Below are positions 1 to 26,567 of a DNA stretch of 26,567 nt, piece by piece. The position numbers and the translations under genes were made by a program. The notes under the pieces were generated by a model. It made no database searches. It was not told where the DNA came from and saw nothing but the letters and a program-made list of their open reading frames with translations. This stretch comes from a virus. The stretch spans positions 1 through 26,567 of IMG/VR virus record IMGVR_UViG_3300047552_000493, one strand, 5' to 3'. The number at the start of each line of letters is the position of its first letter. The stretch's first letter is position 1.

Positions 1-161
1 AGGGACGGGGCACCAGCTCTCGCCAGCTCCGTCACCCAGCATGCACCAGGGACGGGGCACCAGCTCTCGCCAGCTCCGTCACCCAGCATGCACCAGGGAC
101 GGGGCACCAGCTCTCGCCAGCTCCGTCACCCAGCATGCACCAGGGACGGGGCACCAGCTCT
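1..161. repeat. 47-bp tandem repeat array, 3.4 copies
   Basis: Units start at 1, 48, 95 and 142 and are identical where they overlap; the last is cut after 20 bases (142-161). Each unit runs from AGGGACGGGG to a GCATGCACC end and holds two AGCT motifs. There are no unique spacers between units, so it is not CRISPR. The array touches the window edge and may continue to the left. Its function is unknown; an iteron, partition or assembly-end repeat are all possible. Confidence 0.9.
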
Positions 162-200
162 ATTCCAAAAGCGCCCACGATATAGGCGCTTTTGGAATAG
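160..200 (-). terminator. Perfect 16-bp hairpin, likely terminator of the leftward genes
   Basis: The arms 160-175 and 185-200 are perfectly complementary around a 9-nt loop. The core is GCGCC/GGCGC flanked by AAAA on one side and TTTT on the other, the layout of a bidirectional intrinsic terminator, although the T-run is only four bases and is followed by GG. It lies 55 bp beyond the stop of the leftward gene ending at 256, so ending that transcript is its most likely job. Confidence 0.5.
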
Positions 201-217
201 CCGGAACTATCCGGCTA
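198..217. repeat. 8-bp hairpin overlapping the terminator-like stem
   Basis: Arm TAGCCGGA at 198-205 pairs perfectly with TCCGGCTA at 210-217 around the 4-nt loop ACTA. Its first three bases are also the last three of the larger stem at 160-200, so both hairpins cannot be fully formed in one transcript at the same time. Confidence 0.6.
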
Positions 218-255
218 CCGATGATCAATGACGTGAAACAGTGGCTAGGCAGGCG

Positions 256-1026
256 TTAGGTCAGCGCCAGCACTTTTGAAGATTGCACTTCTCGGGCCTC
301 GACATCGACGACGCGATCCGCATTTGCAGCTCGATTCATACGCGCCAGTTCCCGAGCTGCGGCGATCTCCCGCTTCAGCGCGACGGATGCGATAAGCGCT
401 TGCAGCGCCTGAAATTCGGAATCGCTGAAATCACGCTCATCCGCGATCGTATGCACGGCGCCGATGAGCTCATGGACGGTCAAATCAGTGACCAGCGTGA
501 CGGAATCCCGAGGGATAAGATCGCCTTCCGCGACAAGTTCGGCGCGGATGCGGGCCTTTTCTTCAAGCCGCTTTTCTTCCTTGTCGGCTTCGCGCTTCGC
601 CTTTTCGGCCTTCTTCTCTTCGTCGGTCTTTGCAGGCGTATCTACCCAGCCTTTGACGCCTGCCAAAGTGGCTTTGAACGCCTCAACGGCCGCGGCATGG
701 GCGGCCAAGTAGGGCAGGCGCTTTTCACGGTCGGCGCGCTTGAAGCTTCCCATCTTCCCGCCGTCCCAACCGCGGCCGTCGGGCAGGTGCTTGCGCAGGG
801 TATCCATTGCCATGCTGATCGCATGGCCCAAACCTTTGTACATCTCCCCAGTGATCCGGGGATTGCGGCCCTTCGTGGTAGGAAGGGCGGCGATTGCTGC
901 CATGATCTCTTGGTCAGAAGAGCTCGTAACGAAACACATTGCATCGCTGGCGAACTCACCAGCGAAAAGATCCGCTAAGGCGCCGCCGGTCAGAGTGCGG
1001 GCAAGAATCAGGGATTTAAGAGACAT
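256..1026 (-). CDS. Hypothetical 256-aa protein with charged coiled coil
   Basis: I do not recognise the family. The start at 1026 (MSLKSLILAR) is chosen because AAAGGA lies 8 nt upstream; a longer reading frame to 1125 has no such site and would overlap the upstream gene. Residues about 132-165 are almost entirely K, E, R, D and A and should form a charged helix or coiled coil. The N-terminal 30 residues are hydrophobic/alanine-rich but not a clear signal peptide. There is no visible catalytic motif. It is the second gene of a leftward pair, 19 nt after its partner. The DNA is clearly richer in G+C than the rightward structural genes, which suggests separate ancestry or a strongly host-adapted early gene. 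An early or accessory phage role is only an inference from its orientation. Confidence 0.7.
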   Translation of the reverse strand: MSLKSLILARTLTGGALADLFAGEFASDAMCFVTSSSDQEIMAAIAALPTTKGRNPRITGEMYKGLGHAISMAMDTLRKHLPDGRGWDGGKMGSFKRADREKRLPYLAAHAAAVEAFKATLAGVKGWVDTPAKTDEEKKAEKAKREADKEEKRLEEKARIRAELVAEGDLIPRDSVTLVTDLTVHELIGAVHTIADERDFSDSEFQALQALIASVALKREIAAARELARMNRAANADRVVDVEAREVQSSKVLALT

Positions 1027-1045
1027 GATGATGATCCTTTCAGGG

Positions 1046-1405
1046 TTAGAACGAAACGGCCGCGACACGGCGGCGGCGACCATTGCAGGCCACCGCATGG
1101 GCGATACGCGAGACGACGCCCACATGCTGATGGTACGCCATCACATGGGAGTCACGGTCAGACCAAGCCGTGGCCTTCACGGCCACAGCTTGGGCGACTT
1201 CGGCGATGGCTCCAAAATCCGTGCCGATATAGTCCGTGCCGTGGATTTCAGACAGTCGCGCACGGTCGAGGACCATATTCCAGCATGCACGAAACATGGA
1301 AGTAGTGTCCGGAGTGACCTCGAGGTCACGCATGCACGTGACCTGAGCATGAGCATCAAACGGACCACGATGAGCAGTGATCCAAGAAGAGACGCGATTC
1401 AGCAT
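1046..1405 (-). CDS. Hypothetical 119-aa protein
   Basis: This is the first gene of the leftward pair. The ATG at 1405 follows AAAGGA with 8-nt spacing, the same arrangement as the next gene, which is the main support for it being real. A 6-bp hairpin lies directly upstream of the ribosome-binding site. The protein starts MLNRVSSWIT, has several Cys, His and Asp residues and an arginine-rich tail near residues 110-114. I see no membrane segment or known motif. G+C content and codon use match the downstream leftward gene and differ from the rightward genes. Plus-strand frames across this region lack comparable start signals and are treated as shadows. Confidence 0.65.
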   Translation of the reverse strand: MLNRVSSWITAHRGPFDAHAQVTCMRDLEVTPDTTSMFRACWNMVLDRARLSEIHGTDYIGTDFGAIAEVAQAVAVKATAWSDRDSHVMAYHQHVGVVSRIAHAVACNGRRRRVAAVSF

Positions 1406-14829: not shown

Positions 14830-14870
14830 CTTAGATAGCTGCATTGTGCAGTAGACATGAAGGAGCTAAT

Positions 14871-17800
14871 ATGAGTGAAAGTACGCGGTTAGACTTAGAA
14901 AGCAACATCCCGCAGCAAATGGATAAGATCGGCAAGGCCGCCGATGACGCTGCAAAGAAAATCAGTAAGGTCGGCTCCAACTCTGCACTTGCAGAGTTGG
15001 AAAAGACGATGAAGCTTGTCAACGATGACTTTAGAAAGCTTGGAAAAACTGTTGACGACTCGTTTGGTAAGGCTCTTGAGAGCTTGAAGAAGTCTAACAT
15101 ACCTGACAGTATTAGAGATGTATATAATAGGGCGCTAGTCTCCACCAGAGCTGGTACTAGAGCTTTTGAAAGAGATTTCAAATCCGCAGCTAGAGCTTAC
15201 AAAAACGCTACCGATGACATTGCGGCAGCTAAAGCAAGGCTTGATAAGGTTAGGTTGGGGCGTAAGCCGACAAAGGCAGACAGCGTTGAGCTCAATTCTG
15301 CTTTGAAAGCTCAAAAAGCAGCTGAGACTGCAATGGAAAAGGCTAGAGTTCACTCTAAGAGTCTGGAGCTGTTTCACCTCAACCTCCGTAATGCGCTTAA
15401 TAGGGAGTACAACGATTTCTACATTAAGCGTCAAGCTACTCAAAAAACAGCCTCACTAGCAGAACTACAGGCATTCAAAGACCTTGGTGTTAAGCTGCAA
15501 GGTGAGGACGCAGCACTTTACAAGAAACTTACGGCTTCCGATAAGACAGCTGCAGCAGATGAGTTGGCTAGGTACCGTCAGAAGCTGCAAAGTATGGCAG
15601 CGCAGCAGAAAGAGTCTGACTCTCGCCTGCTGGCCCTTCGGCAAGATAGCCTTGCAAGAGGTAAAGCCCTGATACTGCAGGCAGCAAAAGACGACTTGTC
15701 TGCGCAACAGGCTTCCGATAAGACAGCTGCAGCAGATGAGTTGGCTAGGTACCGTCAGAAGCTGCAAAGTATGGCAGCGCAGCAGAAAGAGTCTGACTCT
15801 CGCCTGCTAGCCCTTCGGCAAGATAGCCTTGCAAGAGGCAAAGCCCTGATACTGCAGGCAGCAAAAGACGAACTTATTAAGTTTAAGTCTGCAGAAACAT
15901 CCTCAAAGAGTGCTAAGAATGTCTTAGCAGACCTAGCTAAGAAGGACCAAGAGTTCCTTAACCGATACAAGAACGCAACACAAGACCTTGTAAGCCTCAA
16001 TTCTACAAGAGCTGAGAGCTTGCTAGACTACATGAGTGTTGTGCGTGCTGTCTACGACAAATCCCCAGATTTTGCAACTAAAAAATTTGGCAGCGCAGCA
16101 GTCGGAAGTGCTACAGGTGCGGATTTCGATGCGTTGAAGTCAAAGCTCCAAGACACTAACAAGCAAATACCACCTCTGCTGCAGGGCTTTAAAGCTCTTG
16201 GTGGGCGCCTGATTGACGTGCATTCAGCTACCAGAGGGTTGGCTTCAGGCTTCAACCTTCTTTGGCTCACATGGGGTCAGCTAGGCCCTCTGTTTGCTGG
16301 TGCAGCTATCTCTATGGGCACAAAGAGTATCTTGACGCTAGGTGCCGAAGTTGGTCATCAACTTGAGACCGTTAGGGTACTTTCCCAAGAAACCGACACA
16401 GCAATCCAAGGTTTGAACGCTTCTCTGCTTGCTACGGCAAAGTCAGGACCTCACGGCCCGTTAGAAGTTGCCAAGGCTATGAAAACCTTGTCACTTGCAG
16501 GTCTTGAGGCTTCTCAGGTTCAGTCAGCCTTACCTCGTGTCATGCAGTTCGCTGTTGCAGGCACAACTACGATTGACAAGGCTGCAGAAGTCATGACAGG
16601 TGTGGCTACAGCTTTCGGTTATACAGCTGAGAACTTTGACATCGTTGGTGACGCTATTACTAAGACAGCCGCAGCGTCTAAGGCTGGTGTTGAGGATATG
16701 GGTGAAGCTTTTAAAGCTGCTTCAGTCGTAAGTTCGCAATTTGGTGTAAACCTTAAAGACGTTTCTCTCTTACTTGCGCTGCAGGCTAACTTAAACATTA
16801 AGAACTCCGCAGCAGGTACTAACGTCAGAAATATGTACACTGACCTGTCAGGTCGAAGCAAGGAGTCAAGAAAACTTTTAAAGGAGTTCAATCTTGAGCT
16901 TACAGATTCTGAAGGAAACTTCAAAGATGTAATCTCTATTGCAAGAGAGCTTGACAAGGTTTTTTCAAATCTTTCCGGTAAGTCTGCTAAAGCTTTTAAG
17001 CTTCAGTTGGCAAGTGAGCGCGGAGGTAAGCCTATTACTGCGCTTTACGAGGCTTATAAGACTGAGATTAGAGAATTTTCAGTTGTTAACGGCCAAGTTG
17101 TAGAAACTGTAACTAATCAACTTGAGCAGCTTAAGAAGAGAACAGAAGACGCCTCAGGCTTCATGGCTGTGTCTGCAGCCAAGCTCGCTATGACTCCGCT
17201 TTCTCAAATGCAAAGCGTAGTAGCAACACTTCAGTCTTCTTTGCTTAACGCTTTTAGCGGTATGGAAGATGACGTAATAGTGTTTTCAGCAAGGTTGAAG
17301 GATTTATTCAATAGCAAAGAATTTGAAAATACACTTAGCAACCTTATACGTGGAGTAGCTAGCTTCACAGAAGCCTTGCTAGAAAACTTAGACGTTGTTG
17401 GTAAGGTCATCCTAGGTTACGCAGGCTTTAAAGTTTTAGCCACTACGGCAAGCCTGTTTATCGGTCTCGACACCTGGGTGAAGTCAACAACGGCAAGCCT
17501 TGTTGCCTATAAGACTGCTCAAGGTGCTGCGGCTGGTGCTGACTTTGCCGCAGCTGCTTCAGCAAGTGCTGCAGCGGCAGCAACCGCCAGAGTTGGCGGA
17601 ACCCTTGTAAAAGCGATTCCTGTTATCGGTACAGTTGTTTCTATCGGGACCGCTGCATGGTCTATGTGGGAACTTTATAACCTGACCCAAAGCAAGACTG
17701 CTGAAGCATCGAAAACTGCTGCTGACGGTCTCAGAAAGTCCGGAATCATCTCCGCACTTGAGGAAGAGACTAAGGCACTTGACAAGCAGAACAAAATCCT

Positions 17801-20800
17801 TGCTATGAGTCTTACGCTTAAGCGTAGGGTATCTGAAGCTGAGTTCAACGCTAGAAACTTAGCAGAAGATAACGCTGCTGCACAGGCTAAGCAGCTGAAC
17901 GATGCCGAAGCTCAAGTCAAGGCATCTATTAAAAAAGAAGCAGCTATTAGACAGGTTGCAGCTAATCTGTCTGCAACTCTTTACAAGTCTATGGGTGCTA
18001 AGGCAGCTGAGTCTCCAGCTGTAAAAGCCTTGCTTGAGCAAGCAGACAGAGAAGCGGAAGCCCGTAAAAAGGTTAACAGTGCAAAAGCTAAAGACGAAGT
18101 AGATGCTGCTCTTGAAGCTAGGCAACTAGCTGCAAAACTTAGAGATGAGCAAGGAGCTGCGATGAAAAAGTACGAGCTTAAGTCTTCAGGCACTCAGACT
18201 TTTGATCCCGATGCTAAAAATACTTCTGACAGATCAGCTAAAGCCGAAGCATCTGCTATAGCTAGGCAGATTTCTGCAGTAGAAAAGGCAGGTGCTAGCA
18301 GAGTTGCAGCACTTAAGTCTTCATACGACATGGAGGTTGCAGTTCTTGAGAAGAGTAATTCAGTTAAGCTCATCTCAGACGGAGCGTACCAATCACAGCT
18401 TACTGCTTTGACAGAGAAGTCTGAAGCTGAAAGGCTTGCTGAGATTTCAAACACTGATAAGCTTGTCGAAGCTCTGTACGTTAAAGAACTTTCACGCTAC
18501 AAGGCAGGTACTGAAGAGTATAAGGCTATCGAGGATAAACGTACCGCCTATTTAGAAAGTTCAACTTCGAATCGTACAGCAATAGAGACTGAAGCAAATA
18601 AGCGCAGGCTTGTCGCTGAGATAGAGCACCAAGGTCGCCTGAAGAAAATTCAGAGTGACACAGAAGAGTACCTAGCAGATCTTAAAGGCGAACGCGCTAA
18701 GGAAGCAGCGCTAACGGCCTTGAACAGAAAGTATGAGGACGTTAACGAATCAAGTTCTGTATGGCTACAAGCCGAGAAAGCTTCAGCCTTTGCTACAGTC
18801 GAAGCCGCAGCAAAGCATGAGGCTAAGCTTAGGGAACTTGAGAAGGCTTACGAAGCTGTTAAAAAAGACGCAGATGCTTTGAAGGACTCTGCTGTAGAAA
18901 ACCTGATGTCAGGAAACACTACAGAAGGTGCTTATGCTTCATGGCAAAAGCTTAACGAACAAAAAATTGCTCTAGAAAAAACACTTGGAACATTCAGAGC
19001 CTCTGTCGAACAAGACATAGCTAATCAAAGCGCTATCGCCTATGAGGAAGCGTTTAGAAAGAGGGCTTCAGAGTTCAAGAACTCTCTGTCTGAAGCCCTG
19101 TCTACGGCCTTGATTGAAGGCGGAAAAGACGGCAGCAAATCGCTTAGGAAGCTGATCGAGAACGAGCTGAAGTCTCCCTTCACCGTCTTGTTCCGCATGA
19201 GCATTGACGCTCTCATGAGTGCTTTCGATGGGTCAGGGAGCGCAGGCGGTTCTGGCGGCTCTGGAGGCCTCTCAGGCGTCATGAGCAGCTTGAGTTCGGT
19301 GTCAACACTGAAGACGGCCTACGAAGCGCTCAGCGGCGCTATCGAGGGCAGCATCGGCAAGAGCTTCGAGAACTTTGCTAAGAGTAGCTGGGGTGAAAAG
19401 TTAGGTCTCAGCCAATCGTCTAATGCTGGATACACGCTTCCAAGCGACCTCCCTGGGACGATGGCCGAGACCTCTGAGGCCTTTACGGCAGCTACAAATG
19501 AACTTACCTCAGTGGGTAAAACATTTACCAACGTTGGTACGAATATAGCTGCTAACTTCGCAGGTCAGGCACTTCGTAAAGGTATCAGCGGTGGCTACTC
19601 TGTTGGCGGCACTGGAGAGAAGTTGATGGATGTAGCTGCGATTGCCTCAAACTACTTCCCAGTAATCGGTCCTATAGTAGCTGGTGCAGTCTCCGGCATT
19701 ATCAACATAGCTTTCGGCCACAAGTTTGAGCGTTCTGGCTTAAGAGGTACATTTGCCAACAGCGGGTTCAGCGGTCAGTCGTATCAGAACTACGAAGGTG
19801 GTTGGTTTAGTAGCGATAGAACTGACAGACAAAATCTTGACAGCTCTACAGTAAATCAGTTTACAAACTCTTTCAGAGCTATTCAGGCGTCAACTGCTGT
19901 ACTCGCAATCAACATGGGCCTTTCTGCGGATGCGGCGTTAAACTTTAGAAAGAATGTAGACGTTAGGCTTGACGGTCTTAGCGCTGACGAGCAAAAGAGC
20001 AGGCTTACTGAAATGTTCACTGCCATACAAGAGGACATGGCAAAGGCAACGCTTGACGCTTGGGGTGATTGGTCGGCTATATCTAAGTACGGCGAAACCG
20101 CGTCTCAGGTTTTGACTACAGTCAGCAACAACTTGACAGGCTTTAACGGCATGCTTGACATGCTCGACTTAAAGCTGGTCAAACTCAACTTGTCTAGCGC
20201 AGCTGCAGCGTCTAGCGTTATAGAAGCCGCTGGAGGCATTGACGCGCTTACAGGGGCTTATGGTTCGTACTACGAGAATTTCTACTCAGATTCTGAGCGC
20301 AACAGCAAGGTAATTGAGACAATCGGCGAGAAGTTTGCTTCTCTGGGCGTGACGATGCCTGCGCTGGTTAGAGACGCTGAAGGATTCGTTACGAATGGAG
20401 AGCAGGCAAGAGATACTTTCAGATCGCTAGTAACAGCAATAGCTGACGCTGGTGATATCGCACTAACTACAGAACTTGTAAAGCTTTCTAAAGACTTTGC
20501 GGCAGTAGCTACAGTAAGCGACAAGCTTGAAGGGTTCAGAGGCAGGACTGCTGAGCTACAAGCCGAACTGCTCAAAGCTGAAGGCAACACAAAATCTTAC
20601 GAAAGTGCTGTTGTAGCTCTTGAGAAGAAAGGGCTAACTCCAGCAGAGGGGGCAGTGTATGACTTTAACAAAGTTTTAGAGTCTAGCATAGTATCTCTAG
20701 ATAAGGTTACTGCAGCTAGAGAAACAGCATCTTCCGCTGAAATCAGACTTCTTGAAGCCCAAGGGCTTAAAGCGGAAGCACTGGCTAAGCAGAGGGAGCT

Positions 20801-23800
20801 TGACATCAAGGGGATGTCTGAAGTTGAAACTGCAGCTTACGACTATTCAGTTGCGGTAGACCTTGTAATTGAAAACCTGCAGAAAGAAGCTGACTTTAAA
20901 AAGTCATTGGTAGAGGCTGACGTAAGACTACTGGAGGCGCAAGGTAACGCTGCACTCGCAGCCGCAAAGCAGCGCGAAAAGGAAATAAAAGGCCTGTCAA
21001 GAGCTGAAATTGCAGCTTACGACTACGGTGTCGCTGTCGATAAACAAGTTAAAAGCCTTGAAAGAGCTGCAGGTATCGTTTCTAAGTTGAGTACAGTGTC
21101 TGGAGACATCGCAGAATACTTGAAGCAGTTTAATACTGACAGCGGCGCTAGCTTTGCTAGGACAATTTCTGATGCTTTATCTGGAGACCTTAATGCTATG
21201 GGAAAGGTAACAGACGAGGCTGATAAGGCTATAGAAAAGGCTAAGGCCAGTTCAAAGTCTACTTCTGAGTTTTTACTGAGTAGAGCAGGCATTTTGTCTA
21301 AAGTGCTAGATGTAAAGCAGTTTGCTGACACACTTACGGCTGAGACGGATACTGACAGGCTTATCGCAGCTATCCGAGGTGATACGAACACTTCCACAGC
21401 TGTCGATGAACTCGGCACTAGGCTGAGTAGCAACGACATTGCTGTGTCGCTTAATGCAACACTTGAGACAGTGCAAAGGTCAGGACTAGCTGCAACAGAG
21501 ATTGAAACTATACAAGGTTTGTTCTCGGATATGCATGCAAGCGTGTCAAGCATGGCACTTGACACACAGGCTTCGGTTAGCGGCCAAACGATACTCGGCA
21601 TGTTTGACAGTATGAGAGCTACGGTTTTGACAGTAGCTATGAACGCTTCAGAAGCTGAGCTAGAGAAAGTTACGGATACCTTCAGTAATTTGACGGCTTT
21701 TGTTACTCAGGTGTCTTCTGCTGGACTCTCGGAAACAAGCTCGCAAATTGCGATTGGCACAGCTGCTAACATAACCGCAGCTATTACATCGATTAATGCA
21801 GGAAATAATCTTACTGAAGTTAGCGCACAAACAGCTCTCAGCAGCTTAGCGAACATTTCAGCTTACATTAGCTCTATACAAGTTAGTCCTGGAGAGGACA
21901 TTTCTGGCAAAACGCAGGCAGCACTCGGAGCTTTAGCCTCAGTCTCTGCGAATATCTCAGAAATTCAGGTAGCTTCTGGTACTGTTGAAGCCAGGAAAGC
22001 CTCTTTGCAAAGTTTATTTTCTTCTATTGCGGCTAACATAGCGTCTATTACACTAACTGAAGGTCTTTCTGATGCAACAGCCGCAGACCTTGTCTCTGAG
22101 CTTAGTAACATTTCAGCAAGGGTTTCTGAAGTTAACACCTCCACACTGGTTACTGACGCCACGGCTGCCAATATAAACGGAGAGCTTGACTCTTTGCAGG
22201 CCTCTGTCAGCAGTATTGCGATAACAGCTCCTGAAAGCAACCTAACACGGTTCTTGAGCCAATCAACTTCCTCTATTGCCAGCGCTCTTGCAGTGTCAGC
22301 AGCTTTGGTAAACGGTACAGGCTCATTCGGACTTACAGCTGAACAAGCTTCAAGCCTCGTGGAGCAAACATCGACTATACGTAGATATGTTAGCGTAGCT
22401 GCAGGTACAGCGTCAACTCTTACAGACGTGCAACTTAGGGCTCTGCTTTCGGAAAGTTCTGAAATAGTTAGAACTGTAAGTGCAGTATCAGGTAGTAATA
22501 CGCTGTCTACAGAGCAGAAGCAGGCTTTGACCGAAGCAAGCGAGACAATAACAAAGACTATTTCTGCAACTAGCGGTACTGGAGTCATAACAGCTGACGA
22601 AAGGCTTGCACTTACTTCTGCGTCAGCTACTGTAGAGAGAACTATTAGTGCTGCTAGGGGTCTTGATACTGTAACCGCTAACCAATTGCTAGCTCTTCAG
22701 ACAGCTTCCGGTACTGTTGTTAGAACAATAAATGCTGCGTCAGGGTCCAACACCTTGACAGCCACACAGCTAGCTGCTCTGCAGGCTGATACAGCTACAG
22801 TGACCAGAACCATAAACGCTATAGGTGGCAGTAATACGCTGTCTACAGAGCAAAAAAACTTACTGAATGTGCTCACAGGTGCTTCTGGAAGTAACTTGAC
22901 TGTTGGAGGTTCTGTAGCTTACACACCTGCCAGAAGCCTTAGCGACCTGTACTCTGACCTTGAATCAGCTATAGGTGATATGACCGATGAGATAAAGAGG
23001 TCTACAGACATCGCCAATGCTAGATCACAAGCTGAGCAACTACTTTCTGCAAGGGCTTCTGCAGTTTCTGACGTAAGAGCTAGACTTGCTACTTTGGATG
23101 CTATAGCGAAGGCTTATGGTATTGAGCGTTTAGACGCTCAAGGTAAGGCTGCGACTACTTACGTTACGTCTGAGGGTGCTTTCTACTCAAGCGACAAGAC
23201 TGCTAGAGCTATTTCTGGTAGCTCTTTGGATCTTTATAGATTTTACTATGAGCTGACAAAAGCAGGCATACCTGCTGTAAATGTAGGTACGGAAGCTGCA
23301 CCTAACTATGAGTTAAGAGTCTACAAAGGGTCTTCGGAACAGGCTGAAATTGCGAGCATAAACCGTGACCTTGACGCAGCTAGAGCGGCATTAGTCGAGT
23401 TAGGCGTAGTCCCAGGATTCTCCACTGGCGGCTATACCGGCCCAGGTGGCGTCAATGAAACTGCCGGTATCGTCCACAAGGGCGAAGTCGTCTGGAGCCA
23501 ATCAGACATTGCTCGCGCTGGTGGCCTGAGTATCGTCGAGGCTTTGCGGACTGGCAGCATGGAGATTCCTGCTGGAACACCTGCTCCGGCAGTGACCTAC
23601 AACGGCGTCCAAAGTACAATCAACTTTGACGACAGCGCTTTGCTTGAAGAGCTGCAAGCTCTCAGAGAAGAAGTTGCTAACCTGAGAGTTGAGGCGAGAG
23701 CTTCAGCAGTCAGCAACAACAAGACTGCGAAACTCTTGAAAGAGTTCGACGAGCGGGGTGTGAAGGTTAAAAACGTGCCTTCTGAGACTCTTACAGTAAC

Positions 23801-23810
23801 ATCTTGGTGA
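14871..23810 (+). CDS. Tape measure protein, 2,979 aa
   Basis: The start at 14871 follows AAGGAG by 6 nt. The protein scaffolds the tail tube, sets tail length and is later ejected with DNA. Residues 1-480 are charged, helical coiled coil, including two nearly identical 59-residue units (222-274 and 281-333). Residues about 490-710 match the TP901-type tape measure core (SLAGLEASQVQSALPRVMQF; AGTNVRNMYTDLSGRS). Hydrophobic segments lie near 846-870, 897-940 and 1590-1615. Further repeat blocks occur near 1895-2075 and 2200-2670. The C-terminus carries STGGYTGPGGVNETAGIVHKGEVVWS, split here as GGYTGPGG and GIVHKGEVVW, a motif widely shared by tape measures. No lysozyme or peptidase domain is evident. 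It is more than three times lambda gpH. Confidence 0.93.
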   Translation: MSESTRLDLESNIPQQMDKIGKAADDAAKKISKVGSNSALAELEKTMKLVNDDFRKLGKTVDDSFGKALESLKKSNIPDSIRDVYNRALVSTRAGTRAFERDFKSAARAYKNATDDIAAAKARLDKVRLGRKPTKADSVELNSALKAQKAAETAMEKARVHSKSLELFHLNLRNALNREYNDFYIKRQATQKTASLAELQAFKDLGVKLQGEDAALYKKLTASDKTAAADELARYRQKLQSMAAQQKESDSRLLALRQDSLARGKALILQAAKDDLSAQQASDKTAAADELARYRQKLQSMAAQQKESDSRLLALRQDSLARGKALILQAAKDELIKFKSAETSSKSAKNVLADLAKKDQEFLNRYKNATQDLVSLNSTRAESLLDYMSVVRAVYDKSPDFATKKFGSAAVGSATGADFDALKSKLQDTNKQIPPLLQGFKALGGRLIDVHSATRGLASGFNLLWLTWGQLGPLFAGAAISMGTKSILTLGAEVGHQLETVRVLSQETDTAIQGLNASLLATAKSGPHGPLEVAKAMKTLSLAGLEASQVQSALPRVMQFAVAGTTTIDKAAEVMTGVATAFGYTAENFDIVGDAITKTAAASKAGVEDMGEAFKAASVVSSQFGVNLKDVSLLLALQANLNIKNSAAGTNVRNMYTDLSGRSKESRKLLKEFNLELTDSEGNFKDVISIARELDKVFSNLSGKSAKAFKLQLASERGGKPITALYEAYKTEIREFSVVNGQVVETVTNQLEQLKKRTEDASGFMAVSAAKLAMTPLSQMQSVVATLQSSLLNAFSGMEDDVIVFSARLKDLFNSKEFENTLSNLIRGVASFTEALLENLDVVGKVILGYAGFKVLATTASLFIGLDTWVKSTTASLVAYKTAQGAAAGADFAAAASASAAAAATARVGGTLVKAIPVIGTVVSIGTAAWSMWELYNLTQSKTAEASKTAADGLRKSGIISALEEETKALDKQNKILAMSLTLKRRVSEAEFNARNLAEDNAAAQAKQLNDAEAQVKASIKKEAAIRQVAANLSATLYKSMGAKAAESPAVKALLEQADREAEARKKVNSAKAKDEVDAALEARQLAAKLRDEQGAAMKKYELKSSGTQTFDPDAKNTSDRSAKAEASAIARQISAVEKAGASRVAALKSSYDMEVAVLEKSNSVKLISDGAYQSQLTALTEKSEAERLAEISNTDKLVEALYVKELSRYKAGTEEYKAIEDKRTAYLESSTSNRTAIETEANKRRLVAEIEHQGRLKKIQSDTEEYLADLKGERAKEAALTALNRKYEDVNESSSVWLQAEKASAFATVEAAAKHEAKLRELEKAYEAVKKDADALKDSAVENLMSGNTTEGAYASWQKLNEQKIALEKTLGTFRASVEQDIANQSAIAYEEAFRKRASEFKNSLSEALSTALIEGGKDGSKSLRKLIENELKSPFTVLFRMSIDALMSAFDGSGSAGGSGGSGGLSGVMSSLSSVSTLKTAYEALSGAIEGSIGKSFENFAKSSWGEKLGLSQSSNAGYTLPSDLPGTMAETSEAFTAATNELTSVGKTFTNVGTNIAANFAGQALRKGISGGYSVGGTGEKLMDVAAIASNYFPVIGPIVAGAVSGIINIAFGHKFERSGLRGTFANSGFSGQSYQNYEGGWFSSDRTDRQNLDSSTVNQFTNSFRAIQASTAVLAINMGLSADAALNFRKNVDVRLDGLSADEQKSRLTEMFTAIQEDMAKATLDAWGDWSAISKYGETASQVLTTVSNNLTGFNGMLDMLDLKLVKLNLSSAAAASSVIEAAGGIDALTGAYGSYYENFYSDSERNSKVIETIGEKFASLGVTMPALVRDAEGFVTNGEQARDTFRSLVTAIADAGDIALTTELVKLSKDFAAVATVSDKLEGFRGRTAELQAELLKAEGNTKSYESAVVALEKKGLTPAEGAVYDFNKVLESSIVSLDKVTAARETASSAEIRLLEAQGLKAEALAKQRELDIKGMSEVETAAYDYSVAVDLVIENLQKEADFKKSLVEADVRLLEAQGNAALAAAKQREKEIKGLSRAEIAAYDYGVAVDKQVKSLERAAGIVSKLSTVSGDIAEYLKQFNTDSGASFARTISDALSGDLNAMGKVTDEADKAIEKAKASSKSTSEFLLSRAGILSKVLDVKQFADTLTAETDTDRLIAAIRGDTNTSTAVDELGTRLSSNDIAVSLNATLETVQRSGLAATEIETIQGLFSDMHASVSSMALDTQASVSGQTILGMFDSMRATVLTVAMNASEAELEKVTDTFSNLTAFVTQVSSAGLSETSSQIAIGTAANITAAITSINAGNNLTEVSAQTALSSLANISAYISSIQVSPGEDISGKTQAALGALASVSANISEIQVASGTVEARKASLQSLFSSIAANIASITLTEGLSDATAADLVSELSNISARVSEVNTSTLVTDATAANINGELDSLQASVSSIAITAPESNLTRFLSQSTSSIASALAVSAALVNGTGSFGLTAEQASSLVEQTSTIRRYVSVAAGTASTLTDVQLRALLSESSEIVRTVSAVSGSNTLSTEQKQALTEASETITKTISATSGTGVITADERLALTSASATVERTISAARGLDTVTANQLLALQTASGTVVRTINAASGSNTLTATQLAALQADTATVTRTINAIGGSNTLSTEQKNLLNVLTGASGSNLTVGGSVAYTPARSLSDLYSDLESAIGDMTDEIKRSTDIANARSQAEQLLSARASAVSDVRARLATLDAIAKAYGIERLDAQGKAATTYVTSEGAFYSSDKTARAISGSSLDLYRFYYELTKAGIPAVNVGTEAAPNYELRVYKGSSEQAEIASINRDLDAARAALVELGVVPGFSTGGYTGPGGVNETAGIVHKGEVVWSQSDIARAGGLSIVEALRTGSMEIPAGTPAPAVTYNGVQSTINFDDSALLEELQALREEVANLRVEARASAVSNNKTAKLLKEFDERGVKVKNVPSETLTVTSW
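15534..15871 (+). repeat. Near-identical 161-bp direct repeat in the tape measure gene
   Basis: 15534-15694 and 15711-15871 differ at only two positions, both silent, with a period of 177 bp (59 codons, in frame). The unit encodes a helical coiled-coil segment beginning ASDKTAAADELARYRQ. The near identity points to a recent duplication or ongoing gene conversion. Confidence 0.95.
20552..21090 (+). repeat. Three diverged about 60-residue repeats in the tape measure
   Basis: Units share the pattern LLxAxGxxxxxxAxxREKxIKGLSxxExAAYDYxVAVD, for example RLLEAQGLKAEALAKQREL and RLLEAQGNAALAAAKQREK; the first unit (LLKAEGNTKSYESAVVALEK) is most diverged. Similar LEAQG repeats are common in proteobacterial phage tape measures. 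Confidence 0.75.
21500..22290 (+). repeat. About eight degenerate 30-40-residue repeats in the tape measure
   Basis: Units share a core like ALSSLANISAYISSIQV, ALGALASVSANISEIQV, LQSLFSSIAANIASITL and LVSELSNISARVSEVNT, separated by short polar linkers. They precede and grade into the tighter 28-residue repeats downstream. Confidence 0.7.
22320..22880 (+). repeat. 28-residue (84-bp) tandem repeats in the tape measure
   Basis: Six and a half units of the form SNTLTxxQLxALQxASxTVxRTINAxSG, e.g. SNTLSTEQKQALTEASETIT and SNTLTATQLAALQADTATVT. At DNA level a 23-bp stretch recurs exactly at 22494-22516 and 22830-22852, which is 336 bp, or four units, apart. Confidence 0.85.
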
Positions 23811-23816
23811 ATTAAG

Positions 23817-23844
23817 TAGGGTGGCTGACGCCACCCTAAAGGAT
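23817..23844 (+). promoter_or_regulatory. 9-bp hairpin flush against AAAGGA, deciding a GTG start
   Basis: TAGGGTGGC (23817-23825) pairs perfectly with GCCACCCTA (23830-23838) around TGAC, and AAAGGA begins at the next base (23839-23844), 6 nt before GTG at 23851. A GTG at 23821 lies inside the stem and has no ribosome-binding site, so 23851 is preferred as start. Confidence 0.65.
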
Positions 23845-23850
23845 TTCAAA

Positions 23851-24894
23851 GTGCGAGTAATAAAACCAAAGCCTTTCGTACCTAGTATGCTTGTATCAAC
23901 AAATGCTGTAGAAAAGTACGCTAACTTTTCTATGACTACTTCTTATAGCAAGGGAGCTAGAGTTGTATGCCCTCAGACGTATAAGATATATGAAAGCATC
24001 GTAAACTCAAACTTAGGGAATCAACCTTGTTGGTCATGGGGTGTTGGTCTCTACCCTGTGTATTCGGCAGGTACGACCTATGATGCGGACGATAAGGTAG
24101 AGCACGACACTAAACTTTGGAGAGCTAAGGTTTCTGGTGCTCTAGGAATACCAGTCTCAGGGTCAGAGTGGGAGCTTGTTGTTACAGACTACTCTGAGCA
24201 AAAGTGGCAAGAGGTAGGCCCAAGCAATAAGTACGCAATGTTTGATAGCCAAACTAGCACACAGACGGAGAGCGGTTCACCTCTTACTGTGGTGCTAGAT
24301 ACTGGTATGATCAACAGCCTAGCTCTTGTCGGGCTTAAAGGCACTAAAGTGACGGTTGTGGCTGCCTCTAATGGGACTGAGATGTTTAGACAAATTGTTG
24401 AACTGGACGCTGCAGTTATTACAGATTGGTACCAATACTATTTTGAGGAGTCAGCGCAGGTTACTGAAGTCGTTATGGAGGGTGTGCCACCATACAGCGT
24501 AACTAGGGTAACTGTCACGCTCGAAGGTTCTGGAAATGTGTTGCTTGGAGGAATACTATTCGGAACTCTGTACACTATTGGCGATACAGAGTACGGAGCA
24601 ACTGCAGGCATTACTGACTATTCAGTCAAAGAAACAGACGAGTTCGGAACGACTACCTTTGTTAAACGCGATTTTGCAAAGCGAATGTCAGCTCGGATGA
24701 TGCTGGATAACGTACAATTGCGGAAGGTTCAAAACGTACTTTCCGAACTCCGAGCAACCCCGTGCGTGTGGGTCGGAACTGACGATGACACATACTCTCC
24801 ACTTGTTGTCTATGGGTTTTACAGAGAGTTTTCTCTTGAAATCTCCTACCCAACAAAGTCTTATTGTTCTTTGGACATCGAAGGTCTGACATGA
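23851..24894 (+). CDS. Tail tip / central straight fibre-like protein
   Basis: A 347-aa protein starting at GTG 23851. The C-terminal half (VKETDEFGTTTFVKRDFAKR, then RATPCVWVGTDDDTYSPLVV and YGFYREFSLEISYPTKSYCS) matches a family commonly encoded right after the tape measure in proteobacterial siphophages and often labelled central tail fibre or distal tail protein. The N-terminal part holds two segments resembling chitin/carbohydrate-binding modules of the CBM5/12 type: about 26-60 (TTSYSKGARVVCPQTYKIYE) and 65-105 (YSAGTTYDADDKVEHDTKLW then SGSEWELV). Sugar binding is inference. ATGA couples it to the next gene. Confidence 0.7.
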   Translation: MRVIKPKPFVPSMLVSTNAVEKYANFSMTTSYSKGARVVCPQTYKIYESIVNSNLGNQPCWSWGVGLYPVYSAGTTYDADDKVEHDTKLWRAKVSGALGIPVSGSEWELVVTDYSEQKWQEVGPSNKYAMFDSQTSTQTESGSPLTVVLDTGMINSLALVGLKGTKVTVVAASNGTEMFRQIVELDAAVITDWYQYYFEESAQVTEVVMEGVPPYSVTRVTVTLEGSGNVLLGGILFGTLYTIGDTEYGATAGITDYSVKETDEFGTTTFVKRDFAKRMSARMMLDNVQLRKVQNVLSELRATPCVWVGTDDDTYSPLVVYGFYREFSLEISYPTKSYCSLDIEGLT

Positions 24895-25352
24895 CAGTAA
24901 CTATACCAAGTGTACCTACACCCGTGCCTTCGAGGGCTGACCCTGTTAACTTTGCAGCACGCGCTGATTCTTATCACGCAGCATTGCCAGGTATCGTCAC
25001 GGCTATGAACAGCCAGAACGAGGAGAACAATACTATCAACAGTAATGTTAATGCATTGGCTCTGCTAACTGCTTCTGACAAGGCAGTGTGTTCTGCAGCC
25101 GTAACAGCTGTTAACGCTCAAAGCCCTGTGGCTAATGCAGCTGCTGCAGCAGCTAGTGCCGTTGAAGCAGCTGCTTACGCAAGCCAAGCTCAAGCAACAA
25201 ACCCAGATTCTCCTATTAGGTTGAATCCTAAACAGATATCTGCGAACTTTACGGTTCCTTCTGGCTATAACGCAGGTTCCGTAGGTCCTATCTCCATTCA
25301 AGACGGCATCACCGTAACAGTTTCTGATCACTCCACCTGGAGCATTCAATGA
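24891..25352 (+). CDS. Small tail tip / fibre-associated protein
   Basis: A 153-aa protein beginning in an ATGA overlap and ending in another. The N-terminal segment (PSRADPVNFAARADSYHAAL) resembles the start of proteins next to siphophage tip genes. The middle is an alanine-rich helix (about 85-105). The end, LNPKQISANFTVPSGYNAGS plus GPISIQDGITVTVSDHSTWSI, is a short beta cap found at the C-terminus of many phage fibre and tip proteins. I infer a small fibre or connector that seats the receptor-binding protein encoded next. Confidence 0.65.
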   Translation: MTVTIPSVPTPVPSRADPVNFAARADSYHAALPGIVTAMNSQNEENNTINSNVNALALLTASDKAVCSAAVTAVNAQSPVANAAAAAASAVEAAAYASQAQATNPDSPIRLNPKQISANFTVPSGYNAGSVGPISIQDGITVTVSDHSTWSIQ

Positions 25353-26567
25353 GTAATTTATCAGTCCGCAACATCACTACACCTGACGGTTCTCCGGTAA
25401 GCTTTCCTAACGGAATCCGTGTTGGTACTGACACAGGAGCGGGTAACGTTAACCACATTGGCATTCCAGGTCAGCAAGGATTTGGCCTTGGTATTGCTCC
25501 AGAAATCCCTTTTGGTTTTTCAAAGCTGTACGGCACCGACGATCCTGCAAGTGATAATTACGGCAATTACGTCTATAGTGACGGTTCTGTTATGGTGTAT
25601 GTGCCAGCTTTTTTCTACAAGTACGGTACAGGCAGTAACGGACTTCCTGTTAACTCTGTAAGTGTTAAATCTTTTAGCACTTACGCAGGTGTAGCAGATG
25701 CAAACGCGGATGGATACGCATTGCATCGCGCGTTCTACAACGCTGGCAGCATTCGTCAAGGAGTTTTTGTTGATAAGTACCTGTGCTCTAACAATGGTGG
25801 AATAGCCAGTTCGATTAAGAATGGTATTGCGATGTCTAGCGCAGTGCGCGGCTCGCTGTCGTCAGCGGTGTTTTCTGCGCTCAATGGCGTGTCGGCCAAC
25901 AATTACGGCGGTGCCCTGGCCGCAGCCAAGACGCGCGGCAGCCGATTCTTCTGCAACACGCGCTTCATCTTCGCGGCGCTCGCGCTGCTGTCTGTCGCGC
26001 ACGGCCAGGCGTCTACTGGCACGGCGTTCAACGCCTGGTACAGCGCTGGCTCGACCAACTTCCCCAAGGGTTGCAACAACGACGCGCTGGGCGATGCCAA
26101 CGACGCGACCATTGCCTACACCTCGGACGACAACGGCTCCTACAACTGTGGTCGCACCGGATCAGCCAACTTCTTTGCCCGCACCACGCACAACGGCCAG
26201 AACTGCGGCGTGGCTGACCTGAACGGCCTGCTTTGGGAGGTCAACACGGGCCTGACCAGCAACGGCACCAACTACTACCTGCTCAAGACGGCGACCGATG
26301 CTGCCGCCCTCACCGGCGGCAACACGCTGGCGACCGACGGCTGGGGTGCCACCGGCATTGCAGCCCTGTACGACAGCCTGGGCGCGACCTACGAGTCGAT
26401 GACCGCGTCCAGCACTACCAAGACTTTCGGCAATGCGGCGCAGGTGCTGAGCCACGCCACCAGCGGTACGGCCTGGGCGGCAGCCGGCGCCGGCATTCCG
26501 CTGGTCGGCGGCACCGGTGGCTCCAACCTGTTCGGCAACGACTATCTGTCCGACTACCGTCCGAATG
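25349..26567 (+). CDS. Receptor-binding tail protein with FGE/C-type-lectin-like domain (3' truncated by window end)
   Basis: The frame opens at the ATGA overlap at 25349 and stays open for 406 codons to the window edge, so the end is missing. Residues 1-160 form a virion-attachment part (MSNLSVRNITTPDGSPVSFP; VMVYVPAFFYKYGTG). From about residue 161 the DNA becomes strikingly GC-rich. This part looks like a formylglycine-generating-enzyme/C-type-lectin fold: FARTTHNGQNCGVADLNGLL with WEV (about 277-299) is close to the family's DLNGNVWEW signature, and GNDYLSDYRPN is the last visible segment. Proteins of this fold are known variable targets of diversity-generating retroelements, with the variable part at the extreme C-terminus. 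A role in host recognition is inferred. Confidence 0.78.
   Translation, partial: MSNLSVRNITTPDGSPVSFPNGIRVGTDTGAGNVNHIGIPGQQGFGLGIAPEIPFGFSKLYGTDDPASDNYGNYVYSDGSVMVYVPAFFYKYGTGSNGLPVNSVSVKSFSTYAGVADANADGYALHRAFYNAGSIRQGVFVDKYLCSNNGGIASSIKNGIAMSSAVRGSLSSAVFSALNGVSANNYGGALAAAKTRGSRFFCNTRFIFAALALLSVAHGQASTGTAFNAWYSAGSTNFPKGCNNDALGDANDATIAYTSDDNGSYNCGRTGSANFFARTTHNGQNCGVADLNGLLWEVNTGLTSNGTNYYLLKTATDAAALTGGNTLATDGWGATGIAALYDSLGATYESMTASSTTKTFGNAAQVLSHATSGTAWAAAGAGIPLVGGTGGSNLFGNDYLSDYRPN

What the first reader, a model, noticed from the sequence alone, without database searches (positions are those of the whole stretch)
25349..26567. Receptor-binding protein with a variable-protein-like fold; possible diversity-generating retroelement just off the right edge
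The gene is the last of the tip series and carries an FGE/C-type-lectin-like domain (DLNGLLWEV near residue 290). It is cut by the window at GNDYLSDYRPN, a segment that in related proteins stands just before the C-terminal hypervariable stretch. Phage C-type-lectin receptor-binding proteins with this layout are typical retroelement targets. No reverse transcriptase or template repeat is inside the window, so the system itself is not shown here.
Basis: partly seen in the sequence, partly recalled or inferred. Interest (0 to 1): 0.75.

Follow-up and report, generated by a model that had tools for sequence, protein, structure and literature searches.

The report
Phage tail protein hypermutated by retroelement
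The last gene on this phage DNA fragment is a receptor-binding-type tail protein that stops, cut by the contig end, just before the patch that a self-mutating cassette rewrites in nearly all of its relatives; this is a known kind of system, made slightly unusual because the back two-thirds of the gene appears to come from a different, GC-rich phage.

Summary
The finding holds, as far as the fragment allows. The window is a whole 26,567-base IMG/VR contig, so nothing lies beyond its right edge to read. The last ORF (25349 to the end, 406 aa, open) belongs to a family of which I fetched 102 relatives. Where they are not cut, nearly all continue for about 42 residues into a variable region (SGGxWxxGSxAGVWALxLxxxRGxSxxxxGFRAASYL). 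In 73 relatives a near-copy of it was found, usually 410-530 nt downstream; 57% of its adenines, but at most 1.1% of its other bases, differ from the variable region. Avd and a DGR-type reverse transcriptase accompany it. Of the 20 closest relatives with at least 1.8 kb downstream, 19 have all three parts. The predicted fold of a full-length relative matches TaqVP, a known DGR variable protein (Z 31). The contig ends two bases before the repeat starts. RT, Avd and TR are therefore inferred for this phage, not seen. New detail: the gene is a mosaic. Third-position GC jumps from 0.38 to 0.84 at 25838-25844. Another pair of relatives shows a clean natural swap nearby. Some relatives have lost the cassette. 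Verdict: new member of a known kind; interest modest.

The parts
25349..26566 (+). DGR-target-family tail / receptor-binding protein, 3' end missing (406 of about 448 residues)
   Evidence: phrog_20912; predicted fold of relative L002 matches TaqVP Z 31
25838..25844 (+). mosaic junction inside the gene: low-GC codon usage before it, high-GC after it
   Evidence: change-point at codons 163-165, gain 227 log units against at most 59 in relatives; third-position GC 0.38 versus 0.84; DNA identity to L003 rises from about 0.67 to 0.86
26216..26242 (+). DLNGLLWEV segment, conserved in the family (coordinates from residue numbering, 290-298)
26534..26566 (+). GNDYLSDYRPN, last conserved segment before the variable region; the TR/VR-shared block of relatives starts 2 bases after the contig end
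24864..25352 (+). 162-aa gene next to the target; its C-terminus is like that of tail fibres; also present beside the target in relatives
   Evidence: phrog_5342 and others
23821..24894 (+). 357-aa gene (phrog_6278) upstream in the tip series; linked to the same target family in several other contigs
14844..23810 (+). very long ORF (2988 aa); its first 1000 residues match tape measure proteins, which places the target gene in the tail module

Best explanation
The gene encodes a tail receptor-binding-type protein with an FGE-type C-type-lectin fold, and it is the target of a diversity-generating retroelement whose Avd, template repeat and reverse transcriptase lie just beyond the contig end. 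The reverse transcriptase would copy the template RNA, misreading adenines. The cDNA would then replace the last roughly 110 bases of the target gene, rewriting about 11 surface residues encoded by AAY codons. Shown: membership of the gene in this target family, and the complete DGR in most close relatives. Inferred: that this phage carries it, that it is active, and that the protein binds the host. In this phage the C-terminal part of the target from codon about 164 is foreign, high-GC DNA, most simply explained by recombination within the gene that could bring the cassette along.
For: 102 relatives, 40-85% identical in the best segment. Uncut ones end in a variable region. TR/VR pairs in 73 loci: 57% of TR adenines changed, against 0.3% of C, 0.4% of G and 1.1% of T. 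All three of RT, Avd and TR are present in 19 of the 20 closest relatives and in 54 of 61 viral relatives with at least 1.8 kb downstream. The RT's best solved relative is 8ub7 (E 4e-50); I recognise it from memory as the BPP-1 DGR enzyme, the table says only 'Reverse transcriptase'. Avd by PF22296, phrog_3206 and NF033474, the last below its cut-off. Fold matches TaqVP at Z 31 over 295 residues, and Mtd at Z 13. TR codons are mostly AAC/AAT. Contig ends are enriched at the variable region among relatives, excluding this window: 5 seen, 1.1 expected, P about 0.006.
Against: No RT, TR or VR is in the record itself. Some relatives keep the target gene but lack TR and an intact RT. The gene's 3' two-thirds has foreign composition, and an assembly chimera is not excluded. 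The recombination of this gene is shown by DNA composition and identity, not by a protein tree: the N-part tree does not reject window + L003 + L016 as one clade (p-AU 0.39). No reads were available to show activity.
Confidence: 0.88

Rival explanations
1. The target gene is of the DGR family, but this phage has lost the cassette: the variable region is frozen and the protein is now an ordinary receptor-binding protein.
For: Such losses exist among relatives. L008 against L012 is a clean deletion of about 1.6 kb with flanks 94-98% identical, leaving the Avd start joined to the RT end; L040, L072, L073, L086 and L092 also keep only part of Avd or the RT 3' end.
Against: 19 of the 20 closest relatives with enough sequence have the full system. 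The contig stops two bases before the repeat, as expected if a second copy or population variation disturbed assembly there.
Confidence: 0.09
2. The contig is a misassembly: a low-GC phage joined at about 25,840 to the homologous gene of a high-GC phage from the same sample, so the high-GC back part, and whatever DGR follows it, belongs to the second phage.
For: Abrupt change of composition in one gene, unmatched in 102 relatives; no other contig carries the junction; the contig's left 1.4 kb is also GC-rich and begins with a perfect tandem repeat.
Against: The junction is in frame, at the homologous position, in a stretch where the closest high-GC relatives differ at most third codon positions, so a long shared k-mer is unlikely. 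A natural swap at almost the same position exists between L043 and L065, with 3.5 kb upstream about 95% identical. Even if chimeric, the low-GC part (codons 1-164) is itself a member of the DGR target family.
Confidence: 0.28
3. The protein is an FGE-like or ergothioneine-synthase-like enzyme rather than a binding protein.
For: Fold resemblance to formylglycine-generating enzyme, PvdO and EgtB.
Against: TaqVP and Mtd match better (Z 31 and 13, against 10-11 for FGE); the C-terminal face is rewritten by the DGR in relatives; position in a tail module.
Confidence: 0.02

Closest known systems
TaqVP, Thermus aquaticus DGR variable protein (PDB 5VF4; PMC6328139)
   Same: Same FGE-type C-type-lectin fold over residues 55-448 of the modelled relative (Z 31, 3.0 A, 295 residues); C-terminal variable region.
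   Different: Only about 23% identical over the aligned residues; the family here has some 50 extra N-terminal residues and sits in a phage tail module.
Mtd of Bordetella phage BPP-1 and its DGR (PDB 1YU0-1YU4)
   Same: Phage tropism protein with a C-terminal C-type-lectin variable region; Avd, TR and RT on the same strand in relatives; RT closest to 8ub7 among solved structures.
   Different: Mtd matches much more weakly (Z 13) and has different N-terminal domains; the host here is unknown.
DGR targets of metagenomic phages (Roux et al. 2021, PMC8144416)
   Same: C-terminal variable region, modular targets, wide occurrence in environmental phages. That paper suggested that intragenic recombination may build chimeric targets.
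   Different: Here a swap within the gene is located to the base in a natural pair (L043/L065) and to within 7 bases in the window.

Membership tests
Diversity-generating retroelement (DGR) target gene | C-terminal variable region with a near-identical template repeat, differences at template adenines | tested here: inconclusive
   Met in 73 relatives; the window's own contig ends 2 bases before the region.
Diversity-generating retroelement (DGR) target gene | DGR-type reverse transcriptase nearby | tested here: inconclusive
   None in the record, which ends at the relevant place; present in 40 of 50 relatives' records, best solved hit 8ub7.
Diversity-generating retroelement (DGR) target gene | Avd accessory gene between target and template repeat | tested here: inconclusive
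   Off the contig here; met in relatives.
Diversity-generating retroelement (DGR) target gene | Homology to members of one target family over the pre-variable part | tested here: met
   Homology along the whole 406 residues, 70% or more identity to members with complete DGRs.
C-type-lectin (FGE subtype) DGR variable protein fold | C-type-lectin fold matching TaqVP, Mtd or TvpA | tested here: met
   Model of full-length relative L002 (pLDDT 88): TaqVP Z 31, Mtd Z 13, TvpA Z 11. The window's own truncated protein was not modelled.
Phage receptor-binding protein | Exposed on the tail and binds the host | not testable with these tools
   Only position in the tail module and fold support it.
Active DGR | Adenine-directed variation among reads or isolates | not testable with these tools
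   No reads. Otherwise identical relatives differ in the variable region (for example L005 and L006), which suggests activity in the family.

The most novel reading that the evidence does not exclude
In this phage family the C-type-lectin part of the tail protein and its DGR cassette act as one exchangeable unit: phages swap it by recombination at a conserved stretch within the target gene (about codons 154-165), even between phages of very different GC content, and can later freeze a variant by deleting the cassette.
Probability: 0.45. Interest if true: 0.5.

Novelty: new member of a known kind. Interest (0 to 1): 0.35.

Why it matters
It adds a large and apparently little-annotated family of DGR-diversified phage tail proteins, with relatives also in genomes of Betaproteobacteria, Zetaproteobacteria and other proteobacteria. 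It gives concrete, base-level examples of exchange within a DGR target gene and of cassette loss; such exchange had been suggested from protein modularity. It also indicates that metagenomic contigs tend to break at variable regions, so DGRs are probably under-counted at contig ends.

Tried and rejected
Exact search for the last 28 bases of the contig in viral contigs, to extend it: no hit. Exact search across the mosaic junction: no hit. Megablast of the last 2.5 kb against phage records: none; tblastn found only remote Campylobacter and other phages (about 35% identity or less). Relatives of the left-end gene 256-1125: none. Relatives of the terminase (54-57% identity) did not show this target family, and four of them checked showed no RT, but most records are short. 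A protein-tree test of recombination for the window's own gene was not significant (p-AU 0.39), whereas it was for L043 (p-AU 0.002). Rank correlations of distances between gene parts gave only weak support for the C-part and RT travelling together. The enzyme reading was rejected on fold ranking and context.

Full report
OBSERVATION. The last ORF of the window starts at 25349 and is open at the end (406 codons). The record is a whole virus contig of 26,567 bases, so there is no more sequence to the right. Pfam finds nothing in the protein; PHROGs gives families of unknown function. The surroundings are a phage head and tail module: terminase, portal, major head protein, tail tube, and a 2988-aa ORF whose first third matches tape measure proteins.

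RELATIVES. A search of viral contigs gave 80 loci and a search of genomes gave 22 more. Where the gene is not cut, nearly all continue about 42 residues past the window's last residue and end in a typical DGR variable region. In 73 loci a near-copy exists elsewhere in the locus, usually 410-530 nt downstream on the same strand. Comparing template with variable region, 57% of template adenines are changed, but 0.3% of C, 0.4% of G and 1.1% of T. Template codons at these places are almost all AAC or AAT. Between the variable region and the template lies an Avd gene (PF22296, phrog_3206), and after the template a reverse transcriptase whose best solved relative is 8ub7 (E 4e-50). The table names it only 'Reverse transcriptase'; that it is the BPP-1 enzyme is from memory.

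HOW LIKELY IS THE SYSTEM HERE. Of the 20 nearest relatives with at least 1.8 kb downstream, 19 have RT, Avd and TR; among all viral relatives with that much sequence it is 54 of 61. In the closest loci the block shared by template and variable region starts two bases after the point where the window ends, and the first adenine in it some twelve bases after. Other contigs also end there: L026, L049 and L079 within about 12 bases of the equivalent position, L024 and L044 inside the variable region. Leaving this window out, 5 contig ends fall in the 139-base stretch where 1.1 are expected from the density further downstream (P about 0.006). The set is small and the density is only a rough yardstick. 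It fits assembly breaking at a repeated or hypervariable stretch.

FOLD. A model of the full-length relative L002 (74% identical; mean pLDDT 88) matches TaqVP, a DGR variable protein with an FGE-type C-type-lectin fold, at Z 31 over 295 residues. Mtd of BPP-1 follows at Z 13, TvpA at Z 11 and formylglycine-generating enzymes at Z 10-11 (PMC6328139).

MOSAIC GENE. Composition changes sharply inside the gene: about 45% GC before 25838-25844 and 65% after, with third-position GC of 0.38 against 0.84. No relative shows anything similar (change-point gain 227 against at most 59). DNA identity to the nearest relatives L003 and L016 rises at the same place. The gene is thus a join of a low-GC front, matching most of the contig, and a high-GC back from a close relative of L003/L016. 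A natural parallel exists: L043 and L065 are about 95% identical for 3.5 kb upstream and 100% identical for the first 459 bases of the gene, then about 62%. The tree of the C-part rejects them as one clade (p-AU 0.002) while the N-part unites them (support 99). Their cassettes also differ (about 70% identity). For the window's own gene an assembly chimera is not excluded, and the protein-tree test was not significant. The junction lies within the region that aligns with the C-type-lectin fold, not at a clean domain border.

CASSETTE LOSS. Several relatives lack the template and most of the RT. In L008, against L012, about 1.6 kb is cleanly missing, with flanks 94-98% identical; the start of Avd is joined to the end of RT. 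L040, L072, L073, L086 and L092 keep only fragments. The RT 3' end overlaps the start of a 141-aa gene, which may be why it is kept (inference).

MECHANISM. Most likely, as in known DGRs, adenine-directed mutagenic copying of the template and replacement of the 3' end of the target gene diversify the host-contact face of a tail protein. The chemistry and the receptor role are established for BPP-1 (established knowledge) and are inferred here.

COMPARISON AND NOVELTY. This is a member of a well-known kind. Roux et al. 2021 (PMC8144416) survey DGR targets across metagenomes and suggest intragenic recombination. What is added is a specific family, precise swap points and cases of cassette loss.

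Noticed in passing
window 25838-25844: Third-position GC jumps from 0.38 to 0.84 inside the target gene; the back part is closest to high-GC phages L003/L016.
   Followed up: yes
L043 8001-8460 versus L065 3676-4135: Identical first 459 bases of the target gene and about 95% identity upstream, then a sudden drop to about 62%: a natural swap of the C-part and cassette.
   Followed up: yes
L008 5454-5700; also L040, L072, L073, L086, L092: DGR cassette deleted between Avd start and RT end, or reduced to fragments, leaving a probably frozen variable region.
   Followed up: partly
window 1-161: Perfect 47-base tandem repeat, 3.4 copies, at the very start of the contig; possibly an assembly stop or artefact.
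   Followed up: no
window 1-1400: GC about 55-70% against about 45% for the following 24 kb; no relatives of the minus-strand gene 256-1125 were found in viral contigs.
   Followed up: partly
window 15533-15871: Near-perfect (98-99%) tandem duplication with a 177-base period inside the tape-measure-like gene.
   Followed up: no
L016 4122-4547; L083 11038-11463: A 141-aa gene of unknown family overlaps the RT 3' end and stays next to the target even where the cassette is lost (L008); a candidate tail-fibre partner.
   Followed up: no
L112 12483-14005: DGR Avd and RT downstream of a relative of the 357-aa gene, but no relative of this target was found there: another target may use the same slot.
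   Followed up: no
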